Shown here piece after piece: positions 24,178-46,532 of a DNA stretch of 59,974 bases. The number at the start of each line of letters is the position of its first letter. Position 1 is the first letter of the stretch. Source of the stretch: Anabaena sp. UHCC 0187 (GTDB lineage Bacteria; Cyanobacteriota; Cyanobacteriia; Cyanobacteriales; Nostocaceae); the NCBI RefSeq assembly GCF_009712035.1, contig NZ_VILB01000011.1, positions 1 through 59,974 of the forward strand, in the 5' to 3' direction. The position numbers were made by a program, and so were the translations under genes. The notes under the pieces are model-generated. The model was not told where the DNA came from. It worked only from the letters and a program-made list of their open reading frames with translations, and did not search any database.

Positions 24178-24258
24178 AATAAAAGCATTACCCAATGTCC
24201 AAACTCTATAAATAGCAGCAAAAAAGTAGTATTCTTGCTTTTTAAGGTAGATTTAGTT

Positions 24259-25443
24259 ATGAAAATTGTTTCTATAAAAATTAAAAATTATCGAGCCTTT
24301 GAATTTCTAGAAATCACAGAAATTCCCACCTTTTGCGTCATCATCGGCGCTAATGGTACAGGTAAATCTACCCTATTCGATATTTTTGGCTTTCTCCGCG
24401 ATGCCCTAAAAAATAACATTCGTCAAGCCCTTCAGATCCGGGGTGGATTTAATCAAGTCGTCACCAGAGGCAAAGAACAAGAAGATATCGAAATAGAACT
24501 AAAATTCCGCATGAAAATTCTGGAGACAGAGCGCCTCGTTACTTATATTTTAATTGTTGGACAAGAAGAAAGACGACCCTTAGTTAAAAGAGAAATTCTC
24601 CGGTACAAACGCGGCGAATACGGTTCTCCCTATCACTTTCTCGACTTCCAGAAAGGTAAAGGTTATGCGATCACCAATGAAGAAAATTTTGAACAAACTG
24701 ACGAAGAATTAGAACGCGAAGAACAACAACTCGAATCTAGCGATATCTTAGCAATTAAAGGATTGGGGCAATTTCAACGCTTCAAAGCTGCTAGTGCCTT
24801 TCGTTCACTAATTGAAAATTGGCACGTTTCCGACTTCCATATCAGCGATGCCAGAGGTAGCAAAGATGTATCCTATGCCGAACACCTCACTCCTACAGGT
24901 GATAATATGGCAGTGGTTGCTCAATATATTTATCAAAACCATTCTGACATTTTTCAAGCTATTCTCAACAAAATGAAAGAAAGAGTTCCCGGTATTTCTA
25001 AAGTAGAAGCACAAGAAACAGAAGACGGTAGACTAATTCTCAAATTTCAAGACCAAGCTTTTAAAGACCCCTTCATTGATCGCTATGTTTCTGATGGCAC
25101 AATGAAAATGTTTGCCTATTTAATTCTACTCTTCGATCCTAAACCCCATCCTTTACTATGCGTCGAAGAACCCGAAAACCAACTTTATCCTAGTTTGCTT
25201 CACGAACTTGCTGAAGAATTTGCCAGTTATGCCCACAGAGGTGGACAAGTCTTTGTGTCTACCCACTCCCCCGACTTTCTTAATGCTGTTCCCCTAGAAA
25301 GTATTTTCTGGTTGACAAAAGAACAAGGAATTACCAAAATTTTTCGAGCTAGTGATAATGAAACTCTGAATAACTTAGTGAAAGCAGGAGATTTAGCCGG
25401 ATATCTCTGGAATCAAGGCTGGTTTGAAGGAGTCGCCCCCTGA
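24259..25443 (+). CDS. OLD/RecF-like AAA ATPase of a two-gene defence-type pair
   Basis: 394 aa from ATG 24259; an upstream TTG at 24235 is less likely. It starts MKIVSIKIKNYRAFEFLEI, the usual SMC/RecF-like N-terminus, with Walker A GANGTGKSTLFDIFGFLRDA. The C-terminal half holds the ABC-type signature region FIDRYVSDGTMKMFAYLILL, Walker B PLLCVEEPENQLYPSLLHEL and the H-loop VFVSTHSPDFLNAVPLES. The stop overlaps the start of a DUF4276 gene. ATPase plus TOPRIM-like partner is the plan of anti-phage pairs such as PARIS and AbiL; whether this is one of them cannot be settled by eye. Confidence 0.87.
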   Translation: MKIVSIKIKNYRAFEFLEITEIPTFCVIIGANGTGKSTLFDIFGFLRDALKNNIRQALQIRGGFNQVVTRGKEQEDIEIELKFRMKILETERLVTYILIVGQEERRPLVKREILRYKRGEYGSPYHFLDFQKGKGYAITNEENFEQTDEELEREEQQLESSDILAIKGLGQFQRFKAASAFRSLIENWHVSDFHISDARGSKDVSYAEHLTPTGDNMAVVAQYIYQNHSDIFQAILNKMKERVPGISKVEAQETEDGRLILKFQDQAFKDPFIDRYVSDGTMKMFAYLILLFDPKPHPLLCVEEPENQLYPSLLHELAEEFASYAHRGGQVFVSTHSPDFLNAVPLESIFWLTKEQGITKIFRASDNETLNNLVKAGDLAGYLWNQGWFEGVAP

Positions 25444-26006
25444 TGAGCTATAACCTGATTTTTTTACTAGAAGAACCTTCTATGAAAACTGTACTAGAGA
25501 CTATTCTTCCAAAATTAATTCCTGAACATATTAGCTATATTTGTATCCCCCATCAAGGCAAACAGGATCTTACTAAATCAATTCCTAAGAAGATCAAAGC
25601 CTTTAAGTTTAACCCCGACACAAAATTTATAATCGTTCATGATCAAGATTCCCATGATTGTAAAAAACTCAAATCAGAACTTTTAGAAATTTGTCAAAAT
25701 GCAGGGAACAAAAATATACTGATACGTATAATATGTCATGAACTAGAATCTTGGTTTTTAGGTGATTTAGTTGCAGTGGAAAAAGCATACAGACTAAAAC
25801 CCGAAAGTTTGAGTCAACAACAAAATAAAACAAAGTTTCGTAACCCCGATCAACTCAACTCCGCCAAAGAAGAACTCAGAAAGTTAGTTCCAGAATATTA
25901 CCCCGGTACTCATTCTAGGATGATCGCGCCCTATTTATCCTTGACTGAAAACAAATCTCGTAGTTTTCAAGTTTTTCTCGATGGCATCAATAAAATTCTC
26001 AACTAG
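25443..26006 (+). CDS. DUF4276/TOPRIM-like partner of the AAA ATPase
   Basis: 187 aa. It has an N-terminal strand with acidic residues (NLIFLLEEPSMKTVLETILP), then IIVHDQDSHDCKKLKSELLE, where the D-x-D fits the TOPRIM pattern of a Glu followed by DxD. The strand-helix IRIICHELESWFLGDLVAVE with WFLGD is typical of DUF4276. Its ATG overlaps the ATPase stop by one base, so the two proteins are produced together. Likely role: nuclease or effector controlled by the ATPase. A truncated HsdR frame follows at 26013, indicating a defence-gene neighbourhood. Confidence 0.78.
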   Translation: MSYNLIFLLEEPSMKTVLETILPKLIPEHISYICIPHQGKQDLTKSIPKKIKAFKFNPDTKFIIVHDQDSHDCKKLKSELLEICQNAGNKNILIRIICHELESWFLGDLVAVEKAYRLKPESLSQQQNKTKFRNPDQLNSAKEELRKLVPEYYPGTHSRMIAPYLSLTENKSRSFQVFLDGINKILN

Positions 26007-35341: not shown

Positions 35342-35791
35342 TTACCTAACCTCCTCCCTCGATCTTCTTCTCTCTGCGCCCTCTGCGTCTCTGTGGTTCG
35401 TTTCTAACCAATGATTCATATAATTTGGTAATTCCTGCTTATTTTTACTACTGGCATCAATACAAACGTGCCTAGTAATTGCCTTAGCAACCATTACTTC
35501 ATCTACTGTCATTTCATAGGTAATTTCAAACTTATCCGAACCTATTTTTTCCGGTAACAAACTAATCACTAAATTGTCACCACAATACATAGGAAGAAAA
35601 AAATCTACATTTGCATGAACAATAGGAAAAGCCACAGATGGATTAGTAAAAAATGATTTAAGATTAATACCAGAAGCTGCTAATGAAACCTCATAAGCTT
35701 CATGACAAATTCTGAAAATATTAGCGAAATAAACGACTCCAGCCGCATCAGTATCTTGAAATCGGACAGTGTAGTAATATGTAAAAGCCAT
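35342..35791 (-). CDS. 1,4-Dihydroxy-2-naphthoyl-CoA thioesterase (hotdog fold)
   Basis: 149 aa. The hotdog-fold start [20 protein letters not shown] holds the catalytic Asp of the 4-hydroxybenzoyl-CoA thioesterase type; [20 protein letters not shown] follows. It fits the cyanobacterial DHNA-CoA hydrolase that releases 1,4-dihydroxy-2-naphthoate for MenA. Oddity: the last about 17 residues ([17 protein letters not shown]) are encoded by a dispersed CTCTGCGTCTCTGTGG-type repeat, so a repeat insertion seems to have extended the protein. Confidence 0.87.
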
Positions 35792-35948: not shown

Positions 35949-36000
35949 TGTTTTTTCAGCAACGTAACACAACAATAAAGATTAAAGCAAATCCTTGACT

Positions 36001-39000
36001 ATGAATATGATACAGCTTGGTTCATTAGTGCATTCTCAGACAAATAATTTAGGAGTAGCAAAGGTAGTTGATGTATCTGATACAAAAGCAACAGTTGAGT
36101 ATTTCTGTTCTGTTAGTCAACGCATATCCGAAACTTTCCTATTAAATGCCCTATCTAAAACCAAGCTACAACGTCAAACTCGATGCTATATCTGGCTAGA
36201 AAGCCAAGCTGTCTGGATAATAGGTAGAATCTGGGCTTGGGATGAAGAAATTGAGGAATATGAAGTTCACTTACCTGATAAAAAAGTGATTTTTGTCAGC
36301 GAAGAGGAAATTTATGTGCGCTGCAATATTCCTCAAGCAAACCCCATGGAAACTTTGTCAATCAAAGCTCATGAAACACCATATTTTTATGATAGACGAT
36401 TGACTTTTGTGCAAGCCCTGATTTCGCAACGTGCTGTCTGTCGGGGAATGACAGGATTAATATCTGCAAATATTCAGCTTTATCCTCATCAAGTTGAAGT
36501 TGTGCGGCGGGTGCTAGAAGACCCTATACAACGCTATTTGTTAGCAGATGAGGTGGGACTGGGAAAAACCATTGAAGCTGGTGTAATTCTGCGCCAATAC
36601 CTGTTAGATGAACCAAAAGGGCGGGCAGTAATTATAGTTCCCCAATATTTAGTAGCGCAATGGCGACAAGAATTAGAACAAAAATTTTATCTTTCCCATT
36701 TTCCTAAGCGAGTAGCCATCATTACTATTGATGAACTTCAGAAAATTAATCCCAAAGTAAAAGTTGATTTTGTGATTATAGATGAAGCTCATCATATTGC
36801 AGCTTTGGCAAATTCTCAAAATTCTGGAGAACGTCAAATATTTGAACTTTGTAAACATATTGCCCATAAAAGTGATCGCTTACTTTTATTATCTGCAACT
36901 CCTGTACTCAGTAATGAGAGAGATTTTTTGGCAATGTTACATCTGCTTGATCCTGACACCTATCACCTCAATGATTTAGTTGGGTTTCGCGCCAGAGTGG
37001 AAAATCGTCAACAGATTGGTAAACTTCTTTTCTCTTTTAAAGAAGGTGCAAATCCTTTTGTGATCAAATCTAATATTAAGCTGCTGCGTAGCCTATTTGC
37101 AGAAGATAAATATTTATTAAGTTTGGCGAATGATTTGGAAAATTGTTTACAAACAAAAGCCACGGAAACAGATGCAATTATTCAGTCTATTCGCATCCAT
37201 ATCAGCGAAACCTATCGTTTACATCGGCGAATGTTACGTAACCGTCGGGCTTCGGTAGAAGATGTTATTTTTGACAGAAATATTGTTCCTCAAGAAGAAT
37301 ATGATTTAGACGAGCGAGCAATTGATATTCACGAACTTCTTGATCAATGGCGTTCTCTTGCACCTCATCAACAGGAATATCAGCGGATTTATTTACTATT
37401 TTTCCTAGCATCTGGGACTTGGTTAGGAATTTTAGAACAGGTAATTACAGCCCGTCAAGGCAATAAGAACCAGTTACAAAAACTTGTGCAGGAGTTTGGA
37501 GAAAAAGATATCAATATCTTGATGCAAACACCAAAGTTTACAGGTGAAGAAGAGATTCTAACATCCTTACTGAAAACGATTCAACAACGTGCAGAAGAAG
37601 GAGAAAGGATTGATCATTTACAAACAATGCTGTTAAATCAGTTGGGTATTTATTTCAAACTACCGCCATCGGTGCGGCGAAATAAGCAAGATTTACTAAC
37701 AAAAATACAGCAGAGAATTCGTCGGCCTGTTTCTGATGATATTCTCCCCAAATTTGTTATTTTTACAAGTTTTGGACAAACCTGTACAGAAATTGTCCGC
37801 TATTTAATTCAGACTTTCCCAGAAACAGCAGTAGTTAGTCATCAAATTGGGGAATCACGAGCAAAGCTAGAGAAGAATTTAACTGATTTCCAGAATAACC
37901 CCAATTGCTTTATTCTTGTATGCGATCGCTCTGGGGAAGAAGGACATAATCTCCAGTTTGCAGACTGGTTAATTCATTTTGATATTCCCTTATCAACTAA
38001 CCGTTTAGAGCAAAGAATCGGCAGACTTGATCGCATTGGGAGTAAAATCAATTTCCAATCTTGTGTATTTCTGGGTATTTATTCAGAAGACAGTCCCCAT
38101 AATGCTTGGTTTCAACTATTAAAAAATGGTTTTAATATCTTTCAGCAATCAATTGCCAGTTTACAGTTTTATATAGATGAAAAATTGCCAGAATTAGAAA
38201 CAGTTTTGTTTGAATTGAGTGCTGCGGGAATATTAGCAATGGTTGAGCCACTCCAGGAACAAATCCAAGGAGAACTATTGAAGATTAATGAACAATATGC
38301 AATTGATGAAATTGATGCCCTTGATGATAATGCAACAGAATATTTTCAAACATTAGATGATGATGATGCTTGTCATCAACGAATGCAGCAAGCAACTGAA
38401 GCTTGGATTTGCCAAACCATCAACTTTCGGCGGAGTTTAGATGTGAATAAAGAAGGAGTAATTAGCTATTATCCTGATAAACATACCTTGGTATCATTAG
38501 ATGAACTAAAAACTCATTTCGCAGCTTGTACAAATAACATCGGCACTTTTAACCGCAGAGTTGCTAACAGAAATACTGAAGTTAATCTTTATCGAATTGG
38601 TGAAAGATTTATTGACTCCCTATCATCTTATATTAATTGGGATGATCGAGGACAATGCTTTGCGATGTGGAGATTTGCACCATCTTGGGATGCTAGTCCA
38701 GGGAGGGAATGGTTTGGTTTTCAATTCAACTATGTGATCGAAACCAACTTAGCCAAATGTGTTAAAAACCCCGCTCAATTAAAAACCATCCAAAGATTAG
38801 CAGACGGACTATTTGCACCCAGTTTAGAAACCATATTTATTGATGCTCGTCATGAACCCATGAGCATTGTTGAGGATGTAGAACTACTGGAAATATTACA
38901 AACTCCTTATAAAGCTAAAGGTAGTCCCTATCGAGATTACAACTTAGCTAAAAATCGCCTATCTATTCTTGATGATTTTGTTGAACCTAGTCAATGGGCT

Positions 39001-39318
39001 GATTTTTGTCGTCGTGCTAGTAATTCCAGTTTAAATCTATTATCTCAACGTCCAGATTTTCAAGAATTGTGTGAAAAAAGTGCTAACCGTGCCGAAGAAA
39101 AGCTTGGTAAAAGATTAGAACAACTTCGTTTAAGGATCAATAGATTTAATCAAGAACAGCAAATTAATGATCCACTATTACAGCAAGAACTTTTGGAAGA
39201 AACAGCATTAAACCAAGAAATTATTGCTGGAATTAGACAACCACATATTCGCTTAGATTCTGTAGGTTTTATCATTGTTTCTGGACAAAACTTACAGCTA
39301 AATCAGGAAAGTGAATAA
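36001..39318 (+). CDS. SNF2/RapA-like helicase (DpdE-like), first gene of five-gene operon
   Basis: 1105 aa from ATG 36001 (an upstream TTG at 35995 adds two). A SNF2-type superfamily 2 core is evident: Walker A LLADEVGLGKTIEAGVILRQ near residue 183, DEAH box VIIDEAHHIA near 261, motif III LLLLSATPVLS, and in the C-terminal RecA lobe ILVCDRSGEEGHNLQFADW with motif VI LEQRIGRLDRIGSKINF near 671. The N-terminal 150 residues look like a small beta domain; the C-terminal 350 residues are unassigned. The layout resembles RapA-like helicases and, by gene order, DpdE of the 7-deazaguanine DNA restriction cluster. It overlaps the next gene by one base. Confidence 0.82.
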   Translation: MNMIQLGSLVHSQTNNLGVAKVVDVSDTKATVEYFCSVSQRISETFLLNALSKTKLQRQTRCYIWLESQAVWIIGRIWAWDEEIEEYEVHLPDKKVIFVSEEEIYVRCNIPQANPMETLSIKAHETPYFYDRRLTFVQALISQRAVCRGMTGLISANIQLYPHQVEVVRRVLEDPIQRYLLADEVGLGKTIEAGVILRQYLLDEPKGRAVIIVPQYLVAQWRQELEQKFYLSHFPKRVAIITIDELQKINPKVKVDFVIIDEAHHIAALANSQNSGERQIFELCKHIAHKSDRLLLLSATPVLSNERDFLAMLHLLDPDTYHLNDLVGFRARVENRQQIGKLLFSFKEGANPFVIKSNIKLLRSLFAEDKYLLSLANDLENCLQTKATETDAIIQSIRIHISETYRLHRRMLRNRRASVEDVIFDRNIVPQEEYDLDERAIDIHELLDQWRSLAPHQQEYQRIYLLFFLASGTWLGILEQVITARQGNKNQLQKLVQEFGEKDINILMQTPKFTGEEEILTSLLKTIQQRAEEGERIDHLQTMLLNQLGIYFKLPPSVRRNKQDLLTKIQQRIRRPVSDDILPKFVIFTSFGQTCTEIVRYLIQTFPETAVVSHQIGESRAKLEKNLTDFQNNPNCFILVCDRSGEEGHNLQFADWLIHFDIPLSTNRLEQRIGRLDRIGSKINFQSCVFLGIYSEDSPHNAWFQLLKNGFNIFQQSIASLQFYIDEKLPELETVLFELSAAGILAMVEPLQEQIQGELLKINEQYAIDEIDALDDNATEYFQTLDDDDACHQRMQQATEAWICQTINFRRSLDVNKEGVISYYPDKHTLVSLDELKTHFAACTNNIGTFNRRVANRNTEVNLYRIGERFIDSLSSYINWDDRGQCFAMWRFAPSWDASPGREWFGFQFNYVIETNLAKCVKNPAQLKTIQRLADGLFAPSLETIFIDARHEPMSIVEDVELLEILQTPYKAKGSPYRDYNLAKNRLSILDDFVEPSQWADFCRRASNSSLNLLSQRPDFQELCEKSANRAEEKLGKRLEQLRLRINRFNQEQQINDPLLQQELLEETALNQEIIAGIRQPHIRLDSVGFIIVSGQNLQLNQESE

Positions 39319-41810
39319 TGACAGATTCATTTATCAAACTGAGAGAAATTCTGCACACAGGTAACATCCCTGAAGATACTAGCGATTTTCAAGAAGGGTG
39401 TTATCAACGTTTATTAAACGCACTGCGGAATCAATCTGGGGTAGGGGATATTGCCAGTTTAATTCGCCATATTCTGCGTTTTGAGGATGAAAAACAGGGT
39501 GGGAATTCGCAAATTTTACTGCAAATTCCTCGAAAACCTAATTTTCCTAATCGAGATATTTGGGAACAATCTGGTATGAATATACTAGCTGAAGATAGAG
39601 AATACTTTCTCATTAGTTCCCGTCCTTGGCAACCCCAATGGCTAAAATTTGCAGATCAATATCCCCCAGATACACCCTTATTTAAAGAAGAAAATCGCCG
39701 CAACTATGAACCAATAGTTGGTGATCCATTTCTACAAATAATGCAGTTAGATAAATATCTCAGCATTGGACAAAGAGAAGCTATTCGTGCAGTTTTAACT
39801 GCACCAAAAAACTCAACTTTAATCATTAATTTACCTACAGGTTCTGGGAAAAGTCTTTGCGCTCAATTACCAGCTTTGTTAAGTTCTAAAAATGGTAGTC
39901 TGACTGTGGTAGTTGTCCCCACAACATCACTAGCAATAGATCAAGAACGAGCATTAAAACAGTTTATTTATCATCCCACAGCATATTATAGTCATGATTC
40001 TTTCGAGGGACAAAAAAGGAAGCAAGAAATACGCAATCGGATTCATGCAGGAACTCAAAAAATAATTTTTACCTCACCAGAAAGCCTCATGGGTAGTCTT
40101 GCACGCCCTATTTATGAGGCTGCAAAACTGGGAATGTTGCAATATTTTGTGATTGATGAAGCCCACATGATTGAGCAATGGGGTAATGATTTTCGCCCCG
40201 CTTTTCAAGAACTTCCAGGCTTTATTAGAAATTTATGGAACTATAGTTCCTTCAACACATTATTACTCACAGCAACATTAACTGAATCTTGTTTAGATAC
40301 TCTAGAATCATTATTTGGTGAAGACTTACAAGTTATTTCTGCTGTGCAACTACGTCCAGAACCTGCTTACTGGTTTAGATGGTGTGATAGTGAAGAAAAG
40401 AGAAAACAAAGACTGATTGAATCACTGTATTACCTACCACGACCACTAATTATTTATGCAACAAAAGTTGATGATGTTAATAATTTAAAAAAGGAATTAT
40501 ATCAGGCTGAATTCAAACGTTGTGCAATTATGACAGGTCAATCTAGTGAGCAAGAAAGGTCACAATTAATCAAAAATTGGCGAGAACAAAATATTGACAT
40601 AGTTATTGCCACCTCTGCCTTTGGACTAGGTGTAGATCAAAGTGATGTGCGGGCAGTTATTCATGTTTGTATTCCCGAAAATATTAACCGTTTTTATCAA
40701 GAAGTAGGTAGAGGTGGAAGAGACGGTAAAGCTTGTTTATCACTGACATTGTATACAAGTAAAGATTACGATATAGCTACAGATATCAATGAAAATTCCG
40801 CCATAACTATCGAGAGAGGTTTACAACGTTGGCAAAGTATGTTTGACGCAAAGAAAATATTAACTAATGGTAGATTTCGAGTTCCTATCAATAAACCTCC
40901 TTCTTGGAAACCTGGAGATATTGATATGAATAGTGAGCAAAATACAGCTTGGAATTTGCGAACATTAACATTACTACAAAGGGTTAAATTAATTGATATT
41001 GATTCAGAAGAACCTCAAAAAGACTGGGACATCTCCAAAAATACTCGAATTATTAATATCCACAATGAAAAACATTTAGATCCATCCACATGGGAAGATG
41101 AAGTTGAACCTGTCCGACTACAACGTAAAAACTGGAGTTATCAAAATCTCAAACTTATGAAAGAAGCTTTAACAGCAAAGCGTTGTCTTTCAGAAATTTT
41201 TGCAGAAGCTTACACTATTTCTTCCCGCAATGTACCGCAACCTAGAAAAGTTGTAAAAGTTTCTCGCGCTTGTGGAGGTTGTCCTGTCTGTCGGCAAAAA
41301 GCTATCCAACCCTTTGCGGGAATTATGCCCTCCCCTAGTCGTGTTTGGCAAGAACCTAATTTTTTTGTTGGGGAGGAATTAGAACGCTTACTTGCAGGTA
41401 ACAAATTATTACTGATTTTTTATGAATCTTTAAATAATAGAAATACTAAAATACCCATAAATAATGTATTAAAATGGTTTGTAGAACAGGGCATCAGAAA
41501 TATGATTATTCCATCTGAGTTTGCAGAAACTTTAACTGAAGATATCAAGATAATCCCCAATGCTTTTATTTTTTTATGGGAAAAATATCAACCATTAAAA
41601 ATGCCCTATCTTCCGACATTAATTGTTCATTCTCCAGGAGAGAAACTACCGGATAACTACTTAACAATAAATAATAATTTTCAAGCTCCCCGGATTATTT
41701 TATTGCCAATAGATACCCCAGATCCTAGTCGTCCTGAGCGACGATTAATAGATATTTTTGCCGGAAAACAATTAAAATTTGCAGTTTTTTGTACGGAGAT
41801 TAGTTTATGA
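39318..41810 (+). CDS. RecQ-like DEAH helicase with Cys motif (DpdF-like)
   Basis: 830 aa. An N-terminal about 140-residue region of unknown fold is followed by a helicase core: Walker A INLPTGSGKSLCAQLPALLS (near 173), DEAH FVIDEAHMIEQWGNDFRPAF (near 280), SAT-like LLLTATLTES, IVIATSAFGLGVDQSDVRAV and motif VI RFYQEVGRGGRDGKACLSLT (near 461), all typical of RecQ/DinG-like enzymes. C652-G-G-C655-P-V-C658 may be part of a zinc site. The C-terminal 150 residues are unassigned. The gene is coupled to its neighbours on both sides by overlaps. Assignment as DpdF is from order and architecture, not a profile match. Confidence 0.82.
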   Translation: MTDSFIKLREILHTGNIPEDTSDFQEGCYQRLLNALRNQSGVGDIASLIRHILRFEDEKQGGNSQILLQIPRKPNFPNRDIWEQSGMNILAEDREYFLISSRPWQPQWLKFADQYPPDTPLFKEENRRNYEPIVGDPFLQIMQLDKYLSIGQREAIRAVLTAPKNSTLIINLPTGSGKSLCAQLPALLSSKNGSLTVVVVPTTSLAIDQERALKQFIYHPTAYYSHDSFEGQKRKQEIRNRIHAGTQKIIFTSPESLMGSLARPIYEAAKLGMLQYFVIDEAHMIEQWGNDFRPAFQELPGFIRNLWNYSSFNTLLLTATLTESCLDTLESLFGEDLQVISAVQLRPEPAYWFRWCDSEEKRKQRLIESLYYLPRPLIIYATKVDDVNNLKKELYQAEFKRCAIMTGQSSEQERSQLIKNWREQNIDIVIATSAFGLGVDQSDVRAVIHVCIPENINRFYQEVGRGGRDGKACLSLTLYTSKDYDIATDINENSAITIERGLQRWQSMFDAKKILTNGRFRVPINKPPSWKPGDIDMNSEQNTAWNLRTLTLLQRVKLIDIDSEEPQKDWDISKNTRIINIHNEKHLDPSTWEDEVEPVRLQRKNWSYQNLKLMKEALTAKRCLSEIFAEAYTISSRNVPQPRKVVKVSRACGGCPVCRQKAIQPFAGIMPSPSRVWQEPNFFVGEELERLLAGNKLLLIFYESLNNRNTKIPINNVLKWFVEQGIRNMIIPSEFAETLTEDIKIIPNAFIFLWEKYQPLKMPYLPTLIVHSPGEKLPDNYLTINNNFQAPRIILLPIDTPDPSRPERRLIDIFAGKQLKFAVFCTEISL

Positions 41811-42718
41811 GTGTACTTAAAGAACCTTTAGCAACACCCAGTAGATTTAAAGGTATTTTTCGATATTTGCTAAATACAGAATATCAGAAAGAGAAAAGAG
41901 AGAGATTAGAGCAAATACTTTCTCCTAATAAATTGGTTGAGCGTCTTCTTTCTTCCGAAGAAAAAGCCAGTGGTAAAAAAGCAGCACACCCGATGCTGCA
42001 TAACAACCTGAGAGAATGTATTAAATCTGGTCTGTTAATAGAAATTGATTATGAGATATCTATCAATCCCCTATTACCAAAAGAAGCCCGGAATCGTGAA
42101 TTAGGTGAACATTTATTACCTGATACTCTAGCTACTTTATTTTTTGCATCTGATAATAAAGATGAAGAAGATTTTGCACTTGTCTGCGCTTGGTTTTTGG
42201 CACAAGATATATATGATTCCCCCGGAAATTGGAAAGAATTACAATATGTTGTCACTGAACAAGGAGTTTCCGAATCCTTAGATTTAAAAATGTCTAGTAG
42301 TACACTTGCTGGTCAAATGAATGACTGGATGTGTTACATGGGTTTAGCTTGGGGTCATGCTTTAGAAGGAAAAAAAGTGATAGTTCCTGATCCTACGGCT
42401 TATATTAAACGTAATCTTTCACATTTATTTTCTGAACAAGAAAATAGAAAATTCCCTATTAGAGAATTTATTGATAGATTAGCCCAAAAGTGTCCTTTAT
42501 TTGAAACAGGTAAATTTCGAGATCAAATAGAAGCAAATATTGGTATTCGTCAACCTAACTATTTATCTACCAGTACAGCTTTCGCTTTATTTCGTCTCCA
42601 AGATGAAGGTTATATTCAGTTACTCAGAGAATCAGATGCTGATTTAATGTTGCTTCCAAAAGCGAATAATGAAGTTGATGATAATAGCAAAGTTTCACAC
42701 ATTATCTGGAAAGGGTAA
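41807..42718 (+). CDS. DpdG-like protein of the helicase/ATPase operon
   Basis: 303 aa, starting inside the end of the helicase gene (ATGA overlap). No enzyme motif is visible. The N-terminal residues about 1-100 (SRFKGIFRYLLNTE, LERLLSSEEKASGKKAAHPM, LRECIKSGLLIEIDYEISIN) look like a winged-helix-type DNA-binding arrangement. The middle has GHALEGKKVIVPDPTAYIKR and the C-terminus STSTAFALFRLQDEGYIQLL, another small helical/winged segment. It is likely a core structural or DNA-recognition subunit for the two helicases and the ATPase. Naming as DpdG-like is by position and size. Confidence 0.65.
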   Translation: MSVLKEPLATPSRFKGIFRYLLNTEYQKEKRERLEQILSPNKLVERLLSSEEKASGKKAAHPMLHNNLRECIKSGLLIEIDYEISINPLLPKEARNRELGEHLLPDTLATLFFASDNKDEEDFALVCAWFLAQDIYDSPGNWKELQYVVTEQGVSESLDLKMSSSTLAGQMNDWMCYMGLAWGHALEGKKVIVPDPTAYIKRNLSHLFSEQENRKFPIREFIDRLAQKCPLFETGKFRDQIEANIGIRQPNYLSTSTAFALFRLQDEGYIQLLRESDADLMLLPKANNEVDDNSKVSHIIWKG

Positions 42719-42723
42719 AAATT

Positions 42724-45700
42724 ATGACTTTTGAAAAATTTGTTTGTTGGAATTCAGAAAATATCCGTCGCGTTATGGATGTGGAAGCAACACAAGCAGA
42801 AAATCACATTTTCTTGGCTACCCATCATCCTATTAAAATGTATCTTCAGGAACTTATCAGAGATACTTCAGTAAGAGTCCCTTATAATGAACAGCAATTT
42901 CTTAAAGACTTTTTAGCTGAAAAAGATTTTGCTTTTGTACCAGTTTTAGGAACTTCTGGTACAGGTAAATCTCATTTAATTCGTTGGTTAGCAGCTAATA
43001 TTCAATCAACACCTCAAAGAAAAGTTTTATTAATTCCTAAAATTGGCACTAATTTAAAAGATATCATTAATTTAATTCTCCAAGGGATGGAAGGAGAAAA
43101 ATTTGATGAATATCGTCAGCGGATAAATCGAGCAACCAATACATTAACAGAAACTCAAGCACGAATTCAGTTACTTAATCAATTAGCAGCAGCAGTTGGT
43201 GATAATGGAAAACGGGATAAAAGTAAACTAACTGATGAAGAAAATTATCTGATTGAAGAATTAGATTCTCTACTATATGATCCATTTTTCCGAGAAAATT
43301 ATTGGTTAAAAGATAATGGGATTATTCACCGTTTAGTTATTCATATTCTCGGATATCGAGATACATTAGAAATTGTTGAAGAACGACGAGAATTTTCTCT
43401 TCATGATTTACCCAATGATGTTCATCATATTCAAAAAGCTAGTGAAAAATCTCGCAGTTTTTATACTGAACTTTGGAGTAATGACGACATTAAAAAAATT
43501 ACCGTAGATTGGTTAAATCTGCATTTAGATGAAGCCATTACTCAAGTTTTGAATTTAGGTCGTGAAGACTTACAAAGATTAATGCGTGAAGTGCGGGAAA
43601 CTTTAGCAGAACAAGGGATTGAATTAGTTTTACTGATTGAGGATTTTGCCAAATTACAAGGTATTGATAGAGAATTATTAGAAGCCGTTTTAGCTAGACC
43701 TCAACAACCAGGAAGTAAACCTTTATGTGCCATGAGAACAGCTTTAGCTTGTACCACAGGTTATTTTAAAGCTTTAATTGATACAGTGAAACAGCGTGTT
43801 ACTTTCAGTGTCAATCTTGATGTTGAAAAAATAGGTGAACAATCTTTAGTTACTCAAGTTGATATTCAAGAGTTTGTATCTAAATACCTGAATGCTGTGC
43901 GTTTAGAAAATGAAGTAATTTTAAATTGGGCTATTTCTGATCAACAAACAGATTTAAATGCAGAATCTTTAACAAATGCTTGTCGTGATTGTGAACATCG
44001 AGAAGCTTGTCATGCTGGTTTTGGTGCTGTTAATGAAATTGGGTTATATCCCTTTAATGCAATAGCTTTAAAACAGATGTTTGCTAAAGTTAATCAGAAA
44101 GAATTTAATCCCCGTATTCTCATTAAAGATGTCCTCAAATACACTTTAGAAAATGGTTATGATGATATTCAAAAAGGTATTTTTCCATCTGTGAGTTTGC
44201 AAAAACACTTTGGTAAAATGCGTCTAAGTGCCATGCTTCAGCAGGATATAAATATTAAAGATCCACAAAATTTTGATCGTCGTCAGGTACTTTTAGATTC
44301 ATGGGATGATGGGGATGAACTTTGTGATTTACCAACGGAGTTGCATACAGCTTTTAATTTACCACCCATAGGAGTAAAGATTAAGCCACTTTCCCAAATT
44401 ACAACTACAGTCGAGGAACAAAAACAAAAAAATGTATATATAACAGAACCCAAACCTGTTGTTAACACAAGTATAAAACTAGAAGGAATTCCCGAAAATT
44501 TAGCTAAAAAAATCGAGATTTTAAATAATTGGAATAATCAAAGTATTCTCCCTCAAGAAGGAGTAGCTAAAGATATCCGTGAATTTATCTTTCCCGCTAT
44601 TGCTCAGTATATCGAGTGGGATAATGAAATGTTATTAGAAAAGACATTTGCTAGTAATTATAGTAAATATTTCAAACAAAGAAATATCGTCTTTTATAGT
44701 CCCAGAGTTACTAGAGAAACCATTGCTGGAGTTAAATTAACCCTTCCTCTCAATCCAGATGATAAAGTTGATTTCAGGGAAACTGTGATCGCTTTTCAAG
44801 CTATCGTACTATATAGTCATTATAAACACTGGAAGTTCAAAGATGGCGATCGCTATTTTCGCACCTACAGCAAACAACTAGAAAAATGGAGTCAGTACGT
44901 CTTAACTGCAATTCGTCGTTATCCTCGTGAGTCTGGAGCAGCTTGGAATCCTCTCCCAGCAGCAGTAGAATTGTTATCAATAAGTTCCACAATGGCCGGA
45001 CATGATACTAATTCCTTAGACAAGTTAATTAACGCGTTATTTCTGGAAATAGATAATCAGGAAAATGTAAATCGCGCTTCCAGTTGGAAAAAGCTATTTG
45101 ATACTCTCAAAAAACACCGTCAAGACTTATTAGATATTGTCCAAAGTCGGATTGCTTGTACTAAAGGTTATTCGACTCAGTTTCAAATTATTGATTCAAC
45201 TCAAATTATTGAACCATTAGAAAAAATTAGAAAATCTTGGCAACCTCAATCTGAAATTCCCAGTGATGTTAATTGTGATATTCTTCAACCAATCTATAAA
45301 TCCCGTCAACAGGTAGATGAATTATTAGAAAAAGCTATTCTAGAAGAAACAGAAAGACAATTAGCTCTTTACCAATCTTTAGTAATGGAATTAGGAGATA
45401 ACTTTAAGAAAAAAGATGTTACTGATAAATTAAAAGTAGCAATGGAAAAAGCCAGAGAAGCCGCGGTGTTTCGAGGTAGGAAAAACTTTGATGATATGAC
45501 ATTGGTACTAAATCAGTTCGGACGGACAGCTACTTCTAGCTATATGGAATCAATGAAACGGTTACAGTCTGAGCAAGAAAATTGTCATGCTGAAATAGCC
45601 AAGCTGCTTCCGTATCTGAGTGAAGATTATCAAAAAGCTATGACAGATACTGAGGAATTTATTAAACATACTAATAATTTTCTTGATGCTTCTTTAGCTG

Positions 45701-45822
45701 AAGTCAAACAAAATATTAGTGATTTAGAAAAATCTGATGGTGCAACTATAGAAACCAGTCATCAAGCTATTCAGGATGGTTTAGCTAACTTACGTAAGTT
45801 ACTGATAGAAATTAAAGGATAA
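42724..45822 (+). CDS. Large P-loop ATPase with Cys cluster (DpdH-like)
   Basis: 1032 aa, 5 bp after the previous gene. Walker A VLGTSGTGKSHLIRWLAANI at about 76-90 and Walker B ELVLLIEDFAKLQGIDRELL at about 300-319 define an AAA/STAND-like NTPase. A Cys cluster C420-R-D-C423-x5-C429-H suggests zinc or Fe-S binding. The second half is largely helical, with a coiled-coil-rich C-terminal third (EKAREAAVFRGRKNFDDMTL, MKRLQSEQENCHAEIAKLLP). The size and position after the DpdG-like gene resemble DpdH; a motor or switch role in a DNA-restricting complex is inferred. Confidence 0.72.
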   Translation: MTFEKFVCWNSENIRRVMDVEATQAENHIFLATHHPIKMYLQELIRDTSVRVPYNEQQFLKDFLAEKDFAFVPVLGTSGTGKSHLIRWLAANIQSTPQRKVLLIPKIGTNLKDIINLILQGMEGEKFDEYRQRINRATNTLTETQARIQLLNQLAAAVGDNGKRDKSKLTDEENYLIEELDSLLYDPFFRENYWLKDNGIIHRLVIHILGYRDTLEIVEERREFSLHDLPNDVHHIQKASEKSRSFYTELWSNDDIKKITVDWLNLHLDEAITQVLNLGREDLQRLMREVRETLAEQGIELVLLIEDFAKLQGIDRELLEAVLARPQQPGSKPLCAMRTALACTTGYFKALIDTVKQRVTFSVNLDVEKIGEQSLVTQVDIQEFVSKYLNAVRLENEVILNWAISDQQTDLNAESLTNACRDCEHREACHAGFGAVNEIGLYPFNAIALKQMFAKVNQKEFNPRILIKDVLKYTLENGYDDIQKGIFPSVSLQKHFGKMRLSAMLQQDINIKDPQNFDRRQVLLDSWDDGDELCDLPTELHTAFNLPPIGVKIKPLSQITTTVEEQKQKNVYITEPKPVVNTSIKLEGIPENLAKKIEILNNWNNQSILPQEGVAKDIREFIFPAIAQYIEWDNEMLLEKTFASNYSKYFKQRNIVFYSPRVTRETIAGVKLTLPLNPDDKVDFRETVIAFQAIVLYSHYKHWKFKDGDRYFRTYSKQLEKWSQYVLTAIRRYPRESGAAWNPLPAAVELLSISSTMAGHDTNSLDKLINALFLEIDNQENVNRASSWKKLFDTLKKHRQDLLDIVQSRIACTKGYSTQFQIIDSTQIIEPLEKIRKSWQPQSEIPSDVNCDILQPIYKSRQQVDELLEKAILEETERQLALYQSLVMELGDNFKKKDVTDKLKVAMEKAREAAVFRGRKNFDDMTLVLNQFGRTATSSYMESMKRLQSEQENCHAEIAKLLPYLSEDYQKAMTDTEEFIKHTNNFLDASLAEVKQNISDLEKSDGATIETSHQAIQDGLANLRKLLIEIKG

Positions 45823-45827
45823 ATAAT

Positions 45828-46532
45828 ATGTTGATAGAAAAATCACAGGAACTAATTGAATTATCTCAGCGTAAAAATGCACTGCAAAATTATGCAAACA
45901 ATCTCCAAGGTTTTCAAACTAGAGAAGAACAAATTAGTGATTTTGTCACAGATATACAGCTAATTGTTCAAGCTGTAAAAGCTTTTCGGGAAAAAGGTAT
46001 TAGTAACATTACCTTGGATAAAAAATTAGATGATCTTCTGAATTTTATTATCCATGCTGAAGAGAATTTTCGGAAAACACCAGATTGGATTATTGATACT
46101 GAAAATTTTAATGCCAAGATTTTAAAAAAAGGCATAGATAATCTAACAAAAACCTTAGAACAGCAATTATCTACAAATTGGCAAATTTACTTATCCCAAA
46201 ATATGCCCAGCACTAATCATGAAATGCTCAATCTTTTATCTAAGGTTCAGGCATTTACTCATAATGTTCAACGAATACAACGCTTAGATAAAGAAATTAA
46301 ACAAGTAATTTATCCTAAAAATACCCAAGAACTTGAATTAGCCCAAACACGAATTGAAGAGTTAAAAGGGTGTTGGAATAGTTTAAGTTCTGATGAAGTA
46401 CCGGAGTCAGTTTTATGCTTACTCAGAGCAGCGGCTAATCAAGGTGCATCTTTGAATCTACTGACTCCAGAAGTTTTGAATTGGGTGAATATTTATGGTA
46501 TTGCTGATTCCTTGAAAATTAGATTAATCTGA
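45828..46532 (+). CDS. Coiled-coil protein, last gene of the Dpd-like operon
   Basis: 234 aa, 5 bp after the ATPase gene, so certainly part of the operon. It is mostly helical: LIEKSQELIELSQRKNALQN, EEQISDFVTDIQLIVQAVKA, DNLTKTLEQQLS, and NVQRIQRLDKEIKQVIYPKN. A compact C-terminal segment LLRAAANQGASLNLLTPEVL with NWVNIYGIADSLKIRL follows. No catalytic motif. It probably binds the coiled-coil end of the large ATPase. It might correspond to DpdI, which I cannot verify. Confidence 0.65.
   Translation: MLIEKSQELIELSQRKNALQNYANNLQGFQTREEQISDFVTDIQLIVQAVKAFREKGISNITLDKKLDDLLNFIIHAEENFRKTPDWIIDTENFNAKILKKGIDNLTKTLEQQLSTNWQIYLSQNMPSTNHEMLNLLSKVQAFTHNVQRIQRLDKEIKQVIYPKNTQELELAQTRIEELKGCWNSLSSDEVPESVLCLLRAAANQGASLNLLTPEVLNWVNIYGIADSLKIRLI

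What the first reader, a model, noticed from the sequence alone, without database searches (positions are those of the whole stretch)
36001..46532. Five-gene helicase/ATPase operon resembling dpdE-F-G-H, without DNA-modification genes
Seen: tight overlaps or 5-bp gaps join a SNF2-like helicase (1105 aa), a RecQ-like DEAH helicase with a Cys motif (830 aa), a 303-aa protein, a 1032-aa P-loop ATPase with a C-x-x-C-x5-C cluster and a coiled-coil protein (234 aa). Known: the 7-deazaguanine (Dpd) system couples modification proteins DpdA-C to restriction-associated proteins including helicase- and ATPase-type members; order and size fit E, F, G and H. Inference: no dpdA, dpdB or dpdC and no preQ0 gene lies in the window, so this may be a modification-independent anti-phage system or a restriction module in trans to a distant dpdA.
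Basis: partly seen in the sequence, partly recalled or inferred. Interest (0 to 1): 0.87.

Follow-up and report, generated by a model that had tools for sequence, protein, structure and literature searches.

The report
Dpd restriction genes without DNA modification
A cyanobacterium carries five genes of a known DNA-marking phage-defence system but none of the genes that make the mark, and most related cyanobacteria found with these five genes are the same, so the five genes may form a defence that works without a self-label.

Summary
Window 36001-46532 holds five intact, tightly packed genes: true dpdE, dpdF, dpdG and dpdH (all above NCBIfam cut-offs) and a dpdI-like gene (below cut-off, conserved position). 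The modification genes are not just beyond the window: dpdA, dpdB, DUF6884 (dpdC), dpdJ and dpdK have no match over cut-off anywhere in the 99.99%-complete genome. The form is common: in an even sample of 386 genomes of the phylum, 7 of 10 with DpdH lack DpdA over cut-off; of all 34 distinct DpdH genomes examined, 24 lack it. Fourteen of these 24 have a compact E-F-G-H-I form without J, and these do not form one clade. dN/dS is well below 1 in all five genes in the pairs examined. In three Microcoleaceae a 24-codon stub of a gene that accompanies dpdA remains just upstream of dpdE: a scar of lost modification genes. In the window's genus, four relatives show the empty site, which bounds the unit to these five genes. 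Best reading: a free-standing core of the Dpd restriction machinery that defends without the 7-deazaguanine self-mark. Activity is inferred, not shown. New variant of a known kind.

The parts
36001..39318 (+). dpdE: SNF2/RapA-like helicase or translocase (alternative TTG start at 35995)
   Evidence: NF041062 1087.6 bits, cut-off 500; PADLOC DpdE 2.6e-236; Pfam SNF2-rel_dom and Helicase_C
39318..41810 (+). dpdF: RecQ-like DEAH helicase with a CGGCPVC cluster
   Evidence: NF041063 932.7 bits, cut-off 550; PDB matches to RecQ-family helicases within residues 135-486
41807..42718 (+). dpdG: predicted multi-winged-helix protein; no nuclease fold recognised
42724..45822 (+). dpdH: AAA-type ATPase with C-x2-C-x5-C cluster and helical C-terminal half
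   Evidence: NF041065 920.9 bits, cut-off 450; Pfam AAA_22 34.8 bits, cut-off 27; model weak, pTM 0.42
45828..46532 (+). dpdI-like: helical/coiled-coil protein, last gene of the unit
   Evidence: NF041066 42.5 bits, below cut-off 150; orthologue at the same place in every locus whose contig reaches past dpdH
35342..35791 (-). left neighbour: 4HBT thioesterase next to menE (host gene, not part of the system)
   Evidence: Pfam 4HBT_2 63 bits; present in 16 of 16 genomes of the genus searched

Best explanation
The window holds a free-standing five-gene unit, dpdEFGHI: the core of the Dpd restriction operon, which in cyanobacteria has outlived the DNA-modification genes (fused dpdC-dpdA and a TGT-like companion) and, in this compact form, also dpdJ, dpdK and dpdD. 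Shown here: gene identities, genome-wide absence over cut-off of the modification genes and of J and K, repeated occurrence of the same five-gene form, dN/dS well below 1, a deletion scar in three relatives, and unit boundaries from empty sites. Inferred: it still acts against phages or other incoming DNA as a multi-ATPase complex. DpdG (winged helices) and DpdH (AAA ATPase with a Cys cluster) would recognise and assemble on target DNA, DpdI would act as adaptor, and DpdE (SNF2 translocase) with DpdF (RecQ-like helicase) would drive along or unwind it, blocking replication or handing it to a host exonuclease. No nuclease was recognised in the unit. Because no 7-deazaguanine mark is available, self must be told from non-self by something else, most simply a structural feature of invading or replicating DNA.
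For: Identities. Own genome: DpdA 0 matches, DpdB 0, DUF6884 0, c8 0, DpdK 0, DpdJ best 32 bits, cut-off 800. Phylum sample: DpdH over cut-off in 10 of 386 genomes, DpdA over cut-off in 6 of 386, both in 3, so 7 of 10 are A-less; one of them (G064) is a 6.0 Mb genome in 2 contigs. Named genomes: 22 of 29 DpdH genomes have no DpdA over cut-off. Compact E-F-G-H-I without J in 14 of the 32 loci whose J status is known. Not one clade: AU test rejects it; A needs at least 5 changes on the tree. dN/dS of the window's genes against G064: E 0.20, F 0.23, G 0.33, H 0.21, I 0.23. Scar: 24 residues from the end of c8 remain 120-135 bp upstream of dpdE in L051, L052, L057; one shuffle of each flank gave 0 hits. 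Empty site in 4 of 5 congeners fetched: the flanks of the G064 operon lie 51-613 bp apart instead of 10.7 kb. Nuclease hint: in L071 DpdI is fused to a 3'-5' exonuclease domain, 100 bits.
Against: No activity data, and expression was not examined. Several A-less loci are broken: L052 (E-F deletion fusion), L047 (stop in H), L064 (F split), L049 (scrambled), which fits decay after loss of the mark in some lineages. Five of 24 A-less genomes have DUF6884 over cut-off somewhere (L047, L049, L053, L054, L055). In L049 and L053 a sub-cut-off TGT-like match lies with it (one 481-aa frame; 4 kb apart), and L064 has a sub-cut-off pair under 1 kb apart with a stop inside, so modification in trans is possible there. 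Many of the 29 named genomes are drafts or MAGs of unstated completeness. The unit has no recognised nuclease, and a restriction module without its mark should harm its host unless it needs another trigger.
Confidence: 0.58

Rival explanations
1. Inverted logic (type IV-like): the unit attacks DNA that carries 7-deazaguanine or another hypermodified base brought by phages or plasmids, instead of sparing it. Cells without dpdA would then be safe by construction.
For: Loss of dpdA removes the conflict such a system would have with its own DNA. Precedent for targeting 7-deazaguanine phage DNA: GrwAB (PMC12137116, passages read); 182 viruses with DpdA/DpdA2 and/or a G+ synthesis gene are counted in PMC6884629 (passages read). 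Cyanobacterial plasmids carry dpdA-type genes without a dpdH match on the same record (Nostoc NIES-3756, Allocoleopsis PCC 7113, Scytonema NIES-4073, Picosynechococcus PCC 73109).
Against: Complete loci with DpdA keep the same E-F-G-H-I genes, which would then attack their own DNA unless specificity changed. No reader domain for a modified base was recognised. Whether phages of these hosts carry such bases was not established: the cyanobacterial DpdA query matched 1 of 50,697 phage records, but it seems too diverged from phage DpdA to test this.
Confidence: 0.13
2. The mark is made in trans by an enzyme not recognised by the profiles, so this is an ordinary restriction-modification system with a distant partner.
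For: A strong QueC match (180 bits or more) is present in 30 of 34 genomes, 258 bits in the own genome, so preQ0 could be made. Three other A-less genomes have a DUF6884 plus TGT-like pair elsewhere.
Against: In the own genome and in G064 neither DpdA, DpdB, c8 nor DUF6884 gives any match at E 0.001. QueC also serves tRNA modification (general knowledge).
Confidence: 0.11
3. A decaying remnant of a full dpd island, not yet erased.
For: Scar of the lost companion gene in three loci; broken genes in L047, L049, L052, L064 and G197.
Against: Nine of 14 compact A-less loci have all five genes full length; four of the other five are cut by contig ends. dN/dS of the ten compact pairs lies between 0.10 and 0.57, mostly 0.2-0.35. 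The same five genes are kept while the others are lost.
Confidence: 0.1
4. Domestication for a host task such as repair of stalled forks or recycling of RNA polymerase (DpdE resembles RapA).
For: Same left chromosomal neighbour in G000, G064 and G048 of one genus; RapA profile 186.6 bits, below its cut-off of 576.
Against: Patchy: 3 of the 9 same-genus genomes listed have DpdH, and four relatives show an empty site. One pair of loci looks as if it swapped the F-C-terminus/G/H/I block, which is more like defence genes.
Confidence: 0.08

Closest known systems
Dpd (7-deazapurine in DNA) system, restriction operon dpdD-dpdK
   Same: DpdE, F, G, H equivalogs and a DpdI-like protein in the usual order
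   Different: In the own genome no dpdA, dpdB, DUF6884, dpdJ or dpdK over cut-off; dpdD was not searched genome-wide but is absent from the locus
DISARM / ARMADA / BRIGADE and related YprA-helicase systems (PMC12458937, abstract start and passages read)
   Same: Several large helicases per operon; DpdE scores 163 bits on DrmD, below cut-off 610
   Different: The YprA-type helicase (DpdJ in Dpd) is absent in the compact form
GrwAB, modification-dependent restriction of 7-deazaguanine phages (PMC12137116, passages read)
   Same: Only as a possible logic: attack on modified DNA without a host mark
   Different: Described there as resembling the GmrSD family; no such protein among the five

Membership tests
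Dpd system | DpdE, DpdF, DpdG, DpdH equivalogs | tested here: met
   All four over NCBIfam cut-offs
Dpd system | DpdI | tested here: inconclusive
   42.5 bits, cut-off 150; the DpdI part of the DpdA-bearing locus L071 also scores below it, 57.7; position conserved
Dpd system | Gene order E-F-G-H-I | tested here: met
   same order E-F-G-H plus an unnamed fifth gene in the annotated plasmids of Nostoc C057 and Enterobacter
Dpd system | DpdA transglycosylase in the genome | tested here: not met
   0 matches in G000; the same search finds DpdA over cut-off in 6 of 386 genomes of the phylum
Dpd system | DpdB | tested here: not met
   0 of 34 genomes over cut-off, own genome 0; it is also missing from the 10 DpdA-bearing genomes of that set, so a weak criterion here
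Dpd system | DpdC (DUF6884) | tested here: not met
   Own genome 0 matches; 15 of 34 genomes over cut-off
Dpd system | DpdJ and DpdK | tested here: not met
   J best 32 bits against 800; K 0 matches
Dpd system | DpdD | not tested
   Not searched genome-wide; not in the locus
Dpd system | dPreQ0 or dADG in genomic DNA | not testable with these tools
   Needs mass spectrometry
DISARM | DrmD equivalog and methyltransferase | tested here: not met
   DpdE scores 163.2 bits on DrmD, cut-off 610; no methyltransferase family among the five. That these features define DISARM is recalled

The most novel reading that the evidence does not exclude
dpdEFGHI is the minimal, modification-independent engine of the Dpd family: a complete defence system on its own that repeatedly shed its self-marking half in cyanobacteria, while the marking half circulates separately on plasmids, where it could serve as a passport against hosts that carry the engine.
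Probability: 0.33. Interest if true: 0.82.

Novelty: new variant of a known kind. Interest (0 to 1): 0.62.

Why it matters
The restriction half of Dpd has no worked-out mechanism (PMC12707154 says the restriction activity tied to the ADG mark has not been further explored; passage read). A natural five-gene form without marks, J, K or D suggests which genes are the core and gives a small, clean system for reconstitution. It also shows that a survey anchored on dpdA and dpdB misses cyanobacterial members: PMC11888242 required dpdAB and reported one unique cyanobacterial island, without restriction genes (section read).

Tried and rejected

Literature: searches listed no paper on dpdE-I without dpdA, judged from listings and from the passages read. 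The key Dpd papers Thiaville 2016, Yuan 2018, Gedara 2023 and de Crecy-Lagard 2024 are not held, so prior mention there is not excluded.
Full report
What is there. The window (contig C2, bases 1-59974 of an 814,808-base contig) contains five genes on the + strand at 36001-46532, with junctions of -1, -4, +5 and +5 nt. NCBIfam equivalog profiles name the first four DpdE, DpdF, DpdG and DpdH, each well over its curated cut-off; the fifth matches DpdI at 42.5 bits, below the cut-off of 150. PADLOC profiles agree for the first four and give nothing for the fifth. The contig of a same-genus hit (G048, 10,298 bases) has the length and match of a contig of Dolichospermum sp. ST_sed8, so the window most likely comes from that genus (inference).

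Is dpdA elsewhere? Not by these profiles. The own genome is rated 99.99% complete (57 contigs). DpdA: 0 matches. DpdB: 0. DUF6884, the DpdC domain: 0. c8, a gene of about 280 codons that stands next to dpdA in five of the DpdA-bearing loci: 0. DpdK: 0. DpdJ: best 32 bits against a cut-off of 800, i.e. other helicases. QueC, for preQ0, is present (258 bits), as it is at 180 bits or more in 30 of 34 genomes searched; since it also serves tRNA modification it says little about DNA.

How common is it? In an even sample of 386 genomes of the phylum, DpdH is over cut-off in 10 and DpdA in 6. Both occur in 3 (G197, G103, G027, 7 to 9 kb apart; the DpdA of G197 is cut short at 302 of 406 positions and its DpdE too), DpdH alone in 7, DpdA alone in 3. 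Three further DpdH and five further DpdA genomes had only sub-cut-off matches and are not counted. A pattern search in named genomes gave 29 loci. Of their 29 genomes 7 have DpdA over cut-off: Amazonocrinis, Chamaesiphon, an uncultured cyanobacterium, Aliterella atlantica and three Bacillota. Four others have weaker TGT-like matches: L049 44.4 bits, L053 21.7, L055 67, L064 20.1. The alignment that seeded the pattern search held cyanobacterial sequences only, five of eight A-less, so the second count is biased; the first is not. Many named genomes are drafts or MAGs. As a small control from other phyla, 10 plasmid records carry DpdH. Eight of the nine non-cyanobacterial ones also carry a DpdA match on the same record, the ninth (Deinococcus) a DUF6884/TGT-like protein below cut-off, and the one cyanobacterial plasmid (Nostoc sp. 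C057) none; the chromosome of C057 was not searched. So the A-less state looks like a cyanobacterial trait, on limited evidence.

Architecture. The fullest cyanobacterial loci read [DpdC-DpdA fusion][c8] E F G H I J K D (profile names for A, C, J, K, D). DpdJ and DpdK are over cut-off in the same 16 of 34 genomes. Fourteen A-less loci have E-F-G-H-I and no J (two more, L070 and L075, are cut by contig ends and not counted; their genomes have no J over cut-off); eight A-less loci still have J, some broken. Two DpdA-bearing loci, G103 and L073, have no DpdJ or DpdK over cut-off but carry diverged J-like genes. E-F-G-H-I is thus the part that stays.

History. On a tree of the five concatenated proteins (34 rows, quick search) presence of A needs at least 5 changes and presence of J 3. 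Holding the 14 compact rows together, or all 24 A-less rows, is rejected by the AU test. Such counts cannot tell gain from loss, but a scar can. In L051, L052 and L057 (Microcoleaceae and a related Oscillatoriales MAG in the same clade of the tree) a stretch matching c8 residues 249-272 of 286 lies 120-135 bp upstream of dpdE, on the right strand, at E 1.9e-6 to 2.7e-4, with no hit in one mononucleotide shuffle of each flank. A whole-genome search found the remnant in the genomes of L051 and L052 at the same places and in that of L050 on another contig, but not at E 0.001 in that of L057; a further remnant lies away from the operon in that of L059. No fuller c8 copy was found in these genomes. 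In the window's own genus no scar was found, but the unit can be bounded. In G064 the operon lies between the thioesterase gene and a gene with a HopA1-family domain (name from Pfam only). In G101, G125, G764 and G763 these two flanks lie 51 to 613 bp apart, against 10.7 kb in G064; of these four, G101 and G125 are known to lack DpdH genome-wide, the other two were looked at only here. A fifth relative, G243, matched only the left flank. In the window itself homology to G101 stops about 22 bp before the dpdE ATG, and the right flank differs from that of G064. The segment that differs in G064 runs from about 140 bp before dpdE to just after dpdI and holds no other gene.

Is it maintained? Nei-Gojobori dN/dS between the window and G064 is 0.20, 0.23, 0.33, 0.21, 0.23 for E to I at dS 0.37-0.47; the ten compact pairs range from 0.10 to 0.57, the highest values being F and I of L050-L052, where L052 carries a deletion. 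Pairs with DpdA or J look alike. Catalytic motifs of E, F and H are present in the window's genes and in G064; the same simple patterns are missed in F of some loci both with and without DpdA. Nine of 14 compact loci have all five genes full length (one of them, L057, has a run of unknown residues in dpdH), four are cut by contig ends, one (L052) is truly damaged. This argues against simple decay in these lineages; it does not show function.

How it may work. E is an SNF2/RapA-type translocase and F a RecQ-type helicase. G is modelled with confidence as a protein of winged helices. H is an AAA-type ATPase with a conserved Cys cluster. I is helical by its weak Pfam and NCBIfam matches (inference), and in one DpdA-bearing locus (L071) it is fused behind a 3'-5' exonuclease domain, a hint that the complex works with an exonuclease. 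No nuclease was recognised in the compact unit, and DpdK, the PLD-type protein of full systems, is absent. I therefore favour a DNA-bound multi-ATPase that blocks or unwinds invading DNA and leaves degradation to host enzymes. In one pair of A-less loci (L055, L065) E is about 97% and J about 85% identical in DNA, while the block from the C-terminus of F through I drops to 52-78%. A block swap of this kind would fit target specificity lying in F-G-H-I; it is one clear case in ten pairs compared.

What it is not shown to be. No plating, expression or modification data exist here. Five of 24 A-less genomes have DUF6884 over cut-off (L047, L049, L053, L054, L055); L049 and L053 have a sub-cut-off TGT-like match with it, and L064 has a sub-cut-off pair with a stop inside. 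Modification in trans is therefore possible there, though not seen in the window's genome by these profiles. Membership: these are bona fide Dpd restriction proteins, but the modification features that define the system were tested and not met, so it should not be filed as a Dpd system proper; 'Dpd-derived, modification-free variant' is the fitting label.

Prior work. PMC11888242 (section read) required dpdAB and reported one unique cyanobacterial island lacking all restriction genes. DpdB is over cut-off in 0 of 34 genomes here, which would explain why such a survey misses them. PMC12458937 (passages read) discusses DpdJ and relatives of Dpd; the passages seen do not mention a J-less, A-less E-I unit. 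The founding Dpd papers could not be read.

Noticed in passing
L119 (Nostoc NIES-3756 plasmid), L121 (Picosynechococcus PCC 73109 plasmid): Gene annotated dpdA (about 700 aa) followed by a DEAD helicase, a second transglycosylase and another DEAD helicase, with no dpdH match on the record: a different partner set for DpdA.
   Followed up: partly
L120 (Allocoleopsis PCC 7113 plasmid): QueD-type gene, dpdA, a DndB-like gene, a 1672-aa helicase and a PLD protein on a 26 kb plasmid: another DpdA variant without a dpdH match.
   Followed up: no
G401 C17:174030-178244, G410 C65:30680-34936, G386 C5:111758-115993, G408 C8:34240-38223: Second, diverged DpdJ-like helicases in frames of 1655-1927 aa, with diverged DpdK-like genes next to them; recalls BRIGADE, which PMC12458937 reports only from halophilic archaea.
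   Followed up: no
L071:13184-14545: DpdI fused to an N-terminal 3'-5' exonuclease domain (DNA_pol_A_exo1, 100 bits).
   Followed up: partly
L055 against L065: Block of F-C-terminus, G, H and I much less alike than flanking E and J, as after a cassette swap.
   Followed up: partly
L054, L055, L064, L065, between dpdE and dpdF: About 690-950 bp with at most a short ORF separates dpdE and dpdF in this clade; gaps of that length were not seen in the other loci (G103 has about 440 bp).
   Followed up: no
L060: MAG named Tatlockia (Legionellaceae) whose operon nests among cyanobacteria in the tree: mis-binned contig or transfer.
   Followed up: no
window 24235-26006: AAA_21/AAA_15-type ATPase (402 aa) followed by a 187-aa ORF with 1-bp overlap; possibly another two-gene defence unit.
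   Followed up: no
MT835580.1 (phage collection): Unannotated 'Bacteriophage sp.' record from faeces matching both DpdA and DpdH; may be a bacterial fragment or a mobile Dpd carrier.
   Followed up: no
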